Shown piece after piece: positions 24,617-50,405 of a stretch of DNA of 64,000 nt. This DNA comes from Novosphingobium resinovorum (GTDB lineage: Bacteria > Pseudomonadota > Alphaproteobacteria > Sphingomonadales > Sphingomonadaceae): positions 1,798,001-1,862,000 of the forward strand of contig NZ_CP017075.1 in NCBI RefSeq assembly GCF_001742225.1, read 5' to 3'. The translations under genes and the position numbers were made by a program. The notes beneath the pieces are model-generated. The model did no database searches. It was given only the letters and a program-made list of their open reading frames with translations, and was not told the DNA's origin. Numbering within the stretch: the stretch's first letter is position 1; each line of letters begins with the position of its first letter.

Positions 24617-24671
24617 TGCGCTGTCCTACAGCGGCGGCCTCTGCCATGATCGCGCCATGTCCGCTTCTCCC

Positions 24672-24845
24672 CAAGGTTACACATGCACGTCGCGCAAGGT
24701 GACACTTCTCGTGCTGCAAGGTGACACTTTTTCACCGCAAGGTGACAGGTTTCGCCCACAAGGTGACACTTTCACCGCCAAATCGGCCCAAGGTGACACC
24801 TTTTCCCTCTGGACCGTGTAAACCGTGTAAACCTGCGTCACCTTA
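24672..24845 (+). repeat. Iterated GGTGACAC array with GTTTACAC cap, copy D1
   Basis: CAAGGT(G/T)ACA-type units start at 24672, 24695, 24717, 24738, 24759 and 24789, spaced 23, 22, 21, 21 and 30 bases. One unit, AAGGTGACACCTT, is a perfect odd palindrome. The array ends in a cap with two tandem GTGTAAACC units (24815-24833) and a final GTCACCTT. Related elements lie in the opposite orientation at 42727-42841 and 50174-50283. The cap ends about 13 bases before the queE start, which lacks a clear ribosome-binding site. Confidence 0.85.
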
Positions 24846-24858
24846 CGACACTGAAACC

Positions 24859-25605
24859 ATGACCCTGACCCTAGCCACCACCACCCCCGGCCAGCCGGAA
24901 ATCTTCGCCTCGCTGCAGGGCGAAGGCCCCTCGATGGGCCGACCGAGCACCTTCGTGCGCCTCTCGCGCTGCAACCTCGCGTGCCAGTGGTGCGACACCG
25001 CCTACACCTGGCGCTTCACCGGCGACAACCGCTTCCACCGCGACGACCTCGCCTTCGAGCGGCGCGAGAATCAGGTGACGATGGAGGAAGCCGACCTCGC
25101 GCAGGCCGTGGCCGACCTCGTGCCCGACCGCCTCGTCATCACCGGCGGTGAGCCGTTGCTGCAGGGCGCCGCGCTCGCCCGCATGGTCAAGGCGCTCGAC
25201 GAAATCCGCCCCGGCATGCACGTCGAGGTCGAGACGAACTCCACCGTCGCGCCGCACCCCGCGCTCGACGCGCGGATCGACCAGTACAACGTCAGCCCCA
25301 AGCTGGCGCACAGCGGCAACCCCGATACCCTCGCGCTGCTGCCCGAACGCCTCGCCGCCTGGGCCGCCGAACCGCGAGCCTTCTTCAAGTTCGTGGTCGC
25401 CACCCGCGACGACCTCGACGAAGTCATGGCCCTGCAACAGACTTACGCCATCCCCGGCGCCCGCCTGTTCCTGATGCCCGAAGGCCGCTCCAGCGATGTC
25501 ATCCGGGAACGGTCGGGCTGGCTGGCGGATTTCTGCTCGCAGCATGGCTTGCGGTTCACGGACCGCTTGCACATCCATCTTTGGGGCGACACGAGAGGCA
25601 CATGA
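24859..25605 (+). CDS. queE: 7-carboxy-7-deazaguanine synthase
   Basis: A 248-residue radical-SAM enzyme that converts carboxy-tetrahydropterin to CDG in queuosine/preQ0 synthesis. The iron-sulphur ligands are in CNLACQWC (C38, C42, C45), the C-x3-C-x2-C pattern seen in QueE; the N-terminal FASLQGEGPSMGRPSTFVRL and the SAM-binding ITGGEPLLQ are diagnostic. The ATG at 24859 is correct by homology; the in-frame extension upstream translates the D1 repeat. No queC, queD or queF is present in the window. The stop overlaps the next gene (ATGA). Confidence 0.96.
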   Translation: MTLTLATTTPGQPEIFASLQGEGPSMGRPSTFVRLSRCNLACQWCDTAYTWRFTGDNRFHRDDLAFERRENQVTMEEADLAQAVADLVPDRLVITGGEPLLQGAALARMVKALDEIRPGMHVEVETNSTVAPHPALDARIDQYNVSPKLAHSGNPDTLALLPERLAAWAAEPRAFFKFVVATRDDLDEVMALQQTYAIPGARLFLMPEGRSSDVIRERSGWLADFCSQHGLRFTDRLHIHLWGDTRGT

Positions 25606-36281: not shown

Positions 36282-36307
36282 ATAGCCGGAATTTCAAGGC
36301 CCTGAAT

Positions 36308-36770
<463 letters not shown>

Positions 36771-42013: not shown

Positions 42014-42679
42014 ATGCGTCTCCTTGCCAAGATCATCGTGTGGTTCATTGCGATCAGCGTGGGCCTGACGGTGCTCTACCGCTTTGTGCCGCCGCCGGTG
42101 ACGGTGACGATGCTGGTAGACGGCAACGGCATCACCAAGGACTGGGTGCCGCTCAGCCGGATCGACCGCAACATGGTCGCCGCTGTGGTCGCCGCCGAGG
42201 ATGGTAAGTTCTGCACGCATAACGGCTTCGACACGCAGGCCATCGAAAAGGCCATGGAGCGCAATGCCCGGGGAGGTCGTATCCGGGGCGGCTCGACGAT
42301 CAGCCAGCAGACCGCGAAGAACGTGTTCCTGTGGCAGGGCGAAGGCTGGACCCGCTACTTACGCAAGGGCTTCGAGGTCTGGTTCACCTTCCTGATCGAG
42401 AACCTGTGGGACAAGCGCCGGATCATGGAGGTTTACCTCAACGTCGCCGAGACCGGCATCGGCACCTACGGCGTCGAGGCCGGGGCGCAGCGCTACTTCG
42501 GCAAGTCTGCCGCCAGTCTCTCTCCCGCCGAGGCAGGGCGCATGGCCGCTGCCCTGCCCAGCCCCAAGACCCGCTCGGTCAAGAGCCCCGCCGGTTTCAC
42601 GCGGCGCTACGGCAATACGATCGCCGCGCGCATCGGCACCGTGAAGCGCGGCGGCTACGACGCCTGTGTCTACGAATAG
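42014..42679 (+). CDS. mtgA: Monofunctional peptidoglycan glycosyltransferase MtgA
   Basis: A 221-residue GT51 enzyme that polymerises glycan strands from lipid II. An N-terminal membrane helix (IIVWFIAISVGLTVLYRF) anchors it facing the periplasm. The catalytic Glu62 lies in AAVVAAEDGKF, followed by the second conserved block GGSTISQQTAKN, RKGFEVWFTFLIE, and KRRIMEVYLNVAETG. No transpeptidase domain follows, which distinguishes it from class A PBPs. It is followed by the D2 repeat. Confidence 0.96.
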   Translation: MRLLAKIIVWFIAISVGLTVLYRFVPPPVTVTMLVDGNGITKDWVPLSRIDRNMVAAVVAAEDGKFCTHNGFDTQAIEKAMERNARGGRIRGGSTISQQTAKNVFLWQGEGWTRYLRKGFEVWFTFLIENLWDKRRIMEVYLNVAETGIGTYGVEAGAQRYFGKSAASLSPAEAGRMAAALPSPKTRSVKSPAGFTRRYGNTIAARIGTVKRGGYDACVYE

Positions 42680-42726: not shown

Positions 42727-42841
42727 GGGTGACAGGTTTACACGGTTTACACTGTCCAGCGGGGAAGGCGTCTCCTTGGGGCGGTAATCTGTCACCTTGC
42801 AAGGGTGAAGCGTCATCTTGTCCCGAGAAGGCGTCACCTTG
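42727..42841 (-). repeat. Iterated GGTGAC array with GTTTACAC cap, copy D2
   Basis: The cap GGTTTACACGGTTTACACTG begins at 42735, after a GGTGAC block. Four degenerate CACCTTG-type units end at 42778, 42799, 42820 and 42841, an exact 21-base period. Orientation is the reverse of D1. It lies between mtgA and the convergent TonB receptor gene. The units here are more decayed than in D1 or D3. The remainder of the 42680-43091 gap is unexplained apart from the terminator. Confidence 0.85.
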
Positions 42842-43035
42842 CCCGCAGCTAGGCACTGCGCCAGAGCAGAACTCGAACTTGCGACAATCGCGTTTCATCG
42901 CGCGCATGTGGGAAATCGACAGGCGAGTTTTCATGTAAGCGTTCTACGCCCGCTCGCCGATGTAGGAAAACGGATCGCACCTGAACCTCGCCCTACTCCG
43001 GGCAAGAAAAAACGTGCCGGACCGGCAAAGAAAAA

Positions 43036-49381: not shown

Positions 49382-50050
49382 TTACGCTTCCGCCGGCTTG
49401 TCGCCGTCGGGGCGGGTCTCGAAGACCTTGTCGACGAGGCCGAATGCCAGCGCTTCGTCAGCTTCGAGGAACGTGTCGCGGTCCATCGCCTTCTCGATCT
49501 CGTCGAGCGACTTGCCGGTGTACTTCACGTAGAGATCGTTCAGGCGGCGGCGCATGCGCAGGATTTCGCGCGCCTGGATCTCGATGTCGCTGGCCATGCC
49601 CTGCGCACCGCCCGAGGGCTGGTGGACCATGATGCGCGCGTTCGGCAGCGCAATGCGCATGCCCGGTTCCCCTGCGGCGAGCAGGAAGCTGCCCATCGAG
49701 GCGGCCTGGCCGATGCACACGGTCGAGACGCGCGGCTTGATGTACTGCATGGTGTCGTGGATCGCCATGCCGGCCGTCACCACGCCGCCCGGCGAGTTGA
49801 TGTACATCGAGATGTCCTTGGTCGGGTTTTCCGATTCCAGGAACAGCAGCTGCGCGACGATGAGCGAGGCCATGTGGTCTTCCACCTGGCCGGTGATGAA
49901 CACGATGCGCTCACGCAGCAGGCGCGAGTAGATGTCGAACGAACGTTCGCCGCGGCTGGTCTGCTCGACGACCATCGGCACGAGTGCGCCCGTCACGGGA
50001 TCGGTGGTGAACTTTCCTTGGGCGTTCGAAGCGCCGAACAGGTCGAGCAT
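49382..50050 (-). CDS. clpP: ClpP protease proteolytic subunit
   Basis: A 222-residue serine protease that forms the tetradecameric chamber of ClpXP/ClpAP. The triad is Ser118 (GQAASMGSF), His143 ([11 protein letters not shown]) and an Asp near residue 192 ([12 protein letters not shown]). The N-terminal axial-loop region and the C-terminal KPAEA are normal. It stands first in a clpP-clpX pair; the usual tig neighbour is 3.4 kb away at 53410. The D3 repeat and a lipoprotein gene lie upstream. Confidence 0.98.
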
Positions 50051-50173: not shown

Positions 50174-50283
50174 CAAGGTGACGCAGGTTTACACGGTTTA
50201 CACTGTCCAGAGGGAGAAGGTGTCACCTTGGGCCGGGAAGTGTCACCTTGTGAGGGGAAGTGTCACCTTGCGGTGTAACCTTG
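50174..50283 (-). repeat. Iterated GTGTCACCTTG array with GTTTACAC cap, copy D3
   Basis: AAGGTGAC opens at 50174, then the cap GGTTTACACGGTTTACACTG (50186 on) and CCAGAGGG; units TGTCACCTTG end at 50230, 50250 and 50270 (period exactly 20), with a shorter final unit GTAACCTTG at 50283. It is the cleanest copy, in the same orientation as D2. It lies in the 50051-50405 gap between the divergent clpP and lipoprotein genes; the rest of that gap has no recognisable feature. Confidence 0.88.
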
Positions 50284-50405
50284 TGCGGTTTTGGGCGGTC
50301 GGATGGGGCATGCGGCGCAGTGTATGGGACGGCGTAGGATGTAGGAAAGCGGACTTTCCGGAAGCGCCCCATTGTGGACATGAGCATTCGTGCTCAAGAT
50401 GCCGT

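What the first reader, a model, noticed from the sequence alone, without database searches (positions are those of the whole stretch)
24672..24845. A dispersed non-coding element built from a GTTTACAC cap and an iterated near-palindrome (copies D1-D3)
Three loci (24672-24845, 42727-42841, 50174-50283) share a unique two-part design: a conserved cap of two tandem GGTTTACAC-type 9-mers followed by CCAG, and beside it an array of units with the core AAGGTGACAC(C)TT. One D1 unit is a perfect odd palindrome. The cap is more conserved than the units. It is not an IS, CRISPR or a known intergenic palindrome I can name. I know of no assigned function.
Basis: partly seen in the sequence, partly recalled or inferred. 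Interest (0 to 1): 0.75.

Follow-up and report, generated by a model that had tools for sequence, protein, structure and literature searches.

The report
Landing sites for a tamed phage protein
The three repeats are short leftover copies of a small genetic cassette found in many members of this bacterial family, and their most striking part looks like the docking site of a host protein descended from a virus DNA-packaging protein, with docking site and protein appearing to change together from species to species.

Summary
D1-D3 are 3 of about 18-20 copies in the genome. Each is a directional cassette: a 5' anchor TKTCCTACA-N25..27-CATG, a variable middle (here the AAGGTGACAC array), and the 3' 'cap', a tandem 9-mer. 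In the same family a full-length form carries a terminase-small-subunit-like (TerS-like) HTH gene that starts at that ATG and often ends at a cap; D1-D3 are gene-less forms, and intermediates exist. The cap sequence switches between genomes ('dialects') while the tandem 9-bp layout mostly stays, even at orthologous loci. In one TerS-like subfamily ('E') the recognition helix predicts the cap: of 73 testable protein columns, the two best associated with cap sequence are helix columns 31 and 32, and the association survives control for overall protein similarity. I conclude that the cap is the binding site of this domesticated protein; that is covariation, not a binding assay. What binding does (transcription boundary/regulation, DNA packaging, or selfish spread) is not shown. 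Seven paper searches showed no description.

The parts
24622..24630 (+). D1 5' anchor TGTCCTACA (promoter-like)
24656..24659 (+). D1 CATG, 25 nt after the anchor; equivalent of the TerS-like start codon
   Evidence: start codon in full-length forms
24672..24802 (+). D1 array of 6 units CAAGGTKACA, 21-30 bp apart
24811..24833 (+). D1 cap GGACCGTGTAAACCGTGTAAACC (tandem 9-mer)
24859..25605 (+). queE-like gene (Radical_SAM) starting 25 nt after the cap
   Evidence: Pfam; the name queE is my reading
42961..42969 (-). D2 5' anchor TTTCCTACA
42932..42935 (-). D2 CATG, 25 nt after the anchor
42769..42841 (-). D2 array of 4 units, two of them degenerate (AAGATGACG, AAGGAGACG)
42735..42757 (-). D2 cap GGACAGTGTAAACCGTGTAAACC; 55 nt further lies the 3' end of the convergent gene 42014-42679 (Transgly domain)
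50340..50348 (-). D3 5' anchor TTTCCTACA
50309..50312 (-). D3 CATG, 27 nt after the anchor
50221..50283 (-). D3 array, 4 units
50186..50208 (-). D3 cap GGACAGTGTAAACCGTGTAAACC
49382..50050 (-). clpP (CLP_protease), starting 135 nt after the D3 cap

Best explanation
D1-D3 are solo, gene-less copies of a cassette 'promoter-like anchor - leaderless TerS-like gene - cap'. The cap (two adjacent 9-mers) is the binding site of a host protein descended from a phage terminase small subunit, the E-type TerS-like protein (in this genome C1:1933363-1933896, minus strand, between an rlpA-like gene and, further on, an IS-like gene); its recognition helix reads the 9-mer, and two adjacent 9-mers would fit neighbouring HTHs of an oligomer. 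Shown: the cassette anatomy, full-length and intermediate forms, genome dialects, orthologous loci with switched dialect, helix-cap covariation. Inferred: physical binding, leaderless transcription. Inferred more weakly (about 0.4): a bound oligomer at the cap, 74-97 nt after the CATG in the clearest array-less copies and about 100-175 nt after it in D1-D3, acts as a transcription boundary or roadblock at gene junctions and so tunes the neighbouring gene (queE, clpP) or stops read-through between converging genes (D2). The array may serve another TerS-like paralogue; that is a guess.
Confidence: 0.65

Rival explanations
1. Mobile, MITE-like element: gene-less copies are internally deleted transposons spread by an autonomous relative.
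For: Between loci of own genome there are 127 alignments; the 25 longest shown are 178-259 bp at 68-82% identity and lie at the element. Full-length/deleted pairs exist. The queE junction is occupied in some genera and without element in others among the loci printed (by eye).
Against: No transposase domain (Pfam, 6 proteins); anchor and cap are not inverted repeats (by eye); many copies are at orthologous positions with a switched cap, which jumping does not explain.
Confidence: 0.25
2. Packaging-start (pac-like) network: the TerS-like protein and its caps start packaging of chromosomal DNA by a phage or gene transfer agent.
For: TerS relatives with a cognate site at the gene; phage TerS recognises pac sites and shows HTHs in a ring (PMC4737164, abstract in listing; PMC6854486 and PMC7947584, passages).
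Against: No TerL among the genes called around 8 E loci (read by eye). RcGTA TerS lacks the HTH and no GTA start sites are known. GTA presence was not tested here.
Confidence: 0.15
3. Plain transcription-factor regulon: the TerS fold was recruited as an ordinary regulator and caps are operators in leaders of housekeeping genes.
For: 41 of 88 downstream genes are co-directional, cap to start 15-204 nt; the same genes recur across genera (queE 12 genomes; lon-like, pdxH-like, moaC-like; names are my reading).
Against: 47 of 88 are convergent, where no gene would be driven; no common pathway that I can see.
Confidence: 0.35
4. Neutral remnants of a decayed TerS-like gene family; ends look conserved only by recent common origin.
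For: Middles are not conserved; fragments of the gene exist (L294, L295).
Against: Ends persist across genera while middles diverge; the cap dialect changes together at many loci.
Confidence: 0.05

Closest known systems
Phage terminase small subunit (TerS) and its pac/cos site
   Same: HTH protein of the PHROG 4044 family; cognate repeated site next to the gene.
   Different: Host gene without TerL in the neighbourhoods read, many solo sites over the chromosome, found across a bacterial family, site dialects.
RcGTA small terminase (gp1)
   Same: Domesticated TerS in Alphaproteobacteria (PMC6854486, passages read).
   Different: RcGTA gp1 lacks the HTH and is described as binding DNA non-specifically; the E-type keeps an HTH whose helix covaries with the site.
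MITEs / REP-RAYT systems (recalled)
   Same: Non-coding dispersed copies with a coding relative sharing the ends.
   Different: No transposase domain, no terminal inverted repeats, in-place site switching.
Transcription-factor regulons with co-evolving operators (recalled)
   Same: Recognition helix and operator change together.
   Different: Most sites come with their own upstream anchor and start codon as a cassette, and about half lie between convergent genes.

Membership tests
Phage terminase small subunit | Sequence similarity to TerS families | tested here: met
   PHROG 4044, 5 of 6 proteins; no Pfam (6 proteins) or NCBIfam (5 proteins) model reached its cut-off
Phage terminase small subunit | TerS fold (N-terminal HTH plus central domain) | tested here: inconclusive
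Phage terminase small subunit | terS next to terL in a packaging module | tested here: not met
   8 E-type host loci of about 3 kb, genes called and read by eye: rlpA-like neighbour in 6, nothing that looks like TerL; met only in the viral relative L359
Phage terminase small subunit | Ring oligomer that binds DNA | not testable with these tools
   needs protein
GTA small terminase | Loss of the HTH domain, non-specific binding | tested here: not met
   HTH present in the model and helix covarying with a site; definition from PMC6854486 passages
Transposon / MITE | Terminal inverted repeats | tested here: not met
   anchor and cap compared by eye in the copies
Transposon / MITE | Target-site duplication | not tested
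   flank pairs were not aligned base by base
Transposon / MITE | Transposase in the full-length form | tested here: not met
   Pfam finds none in 6 proteins
Transcription-factor regulon | Factor-operator covariation | tested here: met
   with the limits stated
Transcription-factor regulon | Expression change of linked genes | not testable with these tools
   no expression data
Known RNA family | Rfam match | tested here: not met
   none at gathering score in the elements; best weak hit CRISPR-DR57 22.2 bits against 39

The most novel reading that the evidence does not exclude
Much of a bacterial family runs a domesticated phage packaging protein on a private, rapidly changing address code: E-type TerS rings sit on about a dozen to twenty chromosomal caps and mark them as packaging starts for gene transfer particles (or as loop or boundary points), and the protein and its sites change dialect together, even between species of one genus.
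Probability: 0.15. Interest if true: 0.95.

Novelty: categorically new. Interest (0 to 1): 0.82.

Why it matters
If the cap is read by the E-type protein, this is a DNA-binding network spread through a bacterial family and built from a phage packaging protein, with a readable helix-to-site code. It gives a natural series of dozens of protein-site pairs for studying how a bacterial factor and its many sites change together, and it offers a testable route to sequence-specific packaging or boundary setting in sphingomonads.

Tried and rejected
Transposon bounded by inverted caps: caps 4.3 kb apart in three genomes looked like ends, but in own genome the interval holds SDR, CFA-type (my reading), argG and rlpA-like genes. 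Simple gene leader: rejected as a general rule, since 47 of 88 downstream genes are convergent. Leader peptide through the cap: wobble positions favour no single frame (by eye). General promoter: TKTCCTACA alone is not enriched in own genome (55 against 51 reversed); the longer GSTTTCCTACA is (17 against 2). RNA element: no Rfam family; some single-strand folds of G045 copies show hairpins in the middle, but no covariance model was built. Wider range: outside family f1 the anchor pattern gives at most 3 per genome; 62 of 285 such genomes have one or more, against 29 for the reversed control (hand count), a small excess that I leave unexplained. PADLOC: nothing in 3 proteins. Foldseek: no row with E at or below 0.001. 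Literature: seven paper searches showed no description of this element or code in their listings; the RepRanger paper names one Erythrobacter in a table row (passage). Subfamily A TerS-like proteins keep nearly the same helix across dialects, so I do not take them for the cap reader (by eye).

Full report
OBSERVATION. In the whole genome (6.92 Mb, 5 contigs; the window is C1:1798001-1862000) there are 18 caps at 0-1 mismatch, 19 with a longer pattern, and 61 GTGTCACCTTG against 3 for the reversed control. Between 18 loci of own genome 127 alignments were found; the 25 longest shown are 178-259 bp at 68-82% identity and lie at the element.

ANATOMY. Reading the strand opposite to the cap as first described gives one direction: TKTCCTACA, about 25-27 nt, CATG, a variable middle, then GGACNGTGTMAACYGTGTMAACC. 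Of 90 distinct cap-bearing copies, 74 have the anchor within 320 bp upstream; some of the other 16 are long forms with a gene between. For the window: D1 24622-24844 (+), D2 42727-42969 (-), D3 50174-50348 (-). The next gene is co-directional in 41 and convergent in 47 of the 88 copies where one was called (gene calls by a codon model trained on the window). D1 precedes a Radical_SAM gene that I read as queE, D3 precedes clpP, D2 lies between convergent genes for a transglycosylase-domain and a TonB-receptor protein.

RANGE. The strict cap pattern occurs in 10 of 397 family genomes and in 55 stretches of a named collection, all titled Novosphingobium. The 5' anchor pattern TTTCCTACA-N23..28-CATG is much wider: 190 of 397 family genomes, 67 of 96 genera, up to 14 per genome. 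Outside the family it stays at no more than 3 per genome, in 62 of 285 genomes against 29 for the reversed control (hand count).

DIALECTS. For 60 loci chosen by the 5' anchor alone in nine genomes, 13 hold a TerS-like gene. In the other 47 a tandem repeat of exactly period 9 stands out: 17 loci with 10/10 identity, against at most 1 at any other period from 4 to 20 and 0.1 in shuffles; 35 of 47 have at least 8/10 at 40-180 nt after the CATG, against 8 of 47 in a control stretch. The 17 best sites start 74-97 nt after the CATG. The 9-mer differs by genome: GTGTAAACC here, CTGTCACAC in G378 and G251, GTGCTCCAG in G285, GTGTCACTT in G165, GTGTTCCAT in part of G014. Six of the nine genomes are of one genus, g15. 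Orthologous places keep the element but change the 9-mer: the queE junction in 12 genomes of 8 genera, three loci shared by G378 and G285, lon-like and pdxH-like loci (gene names are my reading). Some queE junctions have no element (by eye; about half of the 30 printed loci were in the wrong orientation to judge).

CODE. One TerS-like subfamily, E, gave 79 hits below 1e-30 in 67 of 199 genomes, one each in 58 (hand count), and in 6 of 8 loci read it lies next to an rlpA-like gene. Of 81 E loci, 46 gave a cap by rule. Counts: all 11 accepted loci with SHQ[TS] in the recognition helix have CGGTCCA and none of the other 35 does; of 10 with S[AP]QT, 9 have TTCCA or CTCCA; 3 of 3 SRST have GTGTCAG; 3 of 3 SYRT have GTGACA; of 9 with E at the third place, 7 have GTCAAC. 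The three misses look like coding repeats. GTCAAC also occurs in G288 and G340, whose helices are SRQS and SPTS. Four SHQ loci gave no accepted cap; one of them, G103, has short elements of another dialect. Ranking of 73 variable columns puts helix columns 31 and 32 first and second (46 loci); in the set thinned to under 80% identity (37 loci, 71 columns) 32 is first and 31 second. Partial Mantel, helix against cap with the rest of the domain held constant: 0.389 and 0.445, 0 of 2000 permutations each; the rest of the domain keeps a smaller partial correlation (0.220, 3 of 2000; 0.335, 0 of 2000). By eye, caps of unlinked short elements fit the E helix class in G000, G288, G340, G093, G014, G004, G033, G116, G131, G378, G251 and G285, apart from second site types in G014 and G033; G103 does not fit.

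MECHANISM. Binding of the cap by the E-type protein is inferred from covariation. A tandem 9-mer suits two neighbouring HTHs of an oligomer; phage TerS shows HTHs in a ring (PMC4737164, abstract in the search listing; PMC6854486 and PMC7947584, passages read). What binding does is open. I favour a transcription boundary or roadblock at gene junctions, since caps lie just past the cassette's own start and at both co-directional and convergent junctions. Packaging and selfish spread remain possible. The known RcGTA small terminase lacks the HTH, so a GTA role would be a different arrangement.

LIMITS. No experiment; no species tree; hand-copied counts; acceptance rule for caps set after a first look; promoter strength untested; array function unknown.

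Noticed in passing
window 24657-24821: D1's CATG opens a 54-aa frame (my reading) whose array units read QGDTF or QGDRF four times and that stops at the first TAA inside the cap; L294 and L295 also read QGDT after their TerS-like pieces.
   Followed up: partly
L096, L098, L110 and other AP12 loci between L092 and L137: In Novosphingobium sp. AP12 the array unit is mostly GTGTCGCCTTG instead of GTGTCACCTTG, a one-base change seen at many loci at once.
   Followed up: no
L279 (G045), L371 (G103), L178-L192 (G045): Another TerS-like subfamily has a cap with an 11-bp instead of a 9-bp period (GTGTCAACTTA GTGTCAACTT).
   Followed up: partly
L355 (G103), L237 (G079): AAGGTGACAC or AAGGCGACAC arrays also occur in two genomes outside the window's genus.
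   Followed up: no
L001, L091, L246, L247, L332: A box like CGCAAATCCGCCATT seems to recur in the middle of several elements of different genera (by eye).
   Followed up: no
L277 (own genome C1:2000956-2001519 +): A TerS-like gene of another subfamily with the 5' anchor and one TGA inside.
   Followed up: no
window 36307-36767 (-): RNase P RNA (RF00010), 280 bits.
   Followed up: no
L243, L245, L253: Some TerS-like genes have a palindrome-like TATAACCATATNGGTTATA between anchor and start, perhaps an operator.
   Followed up: no
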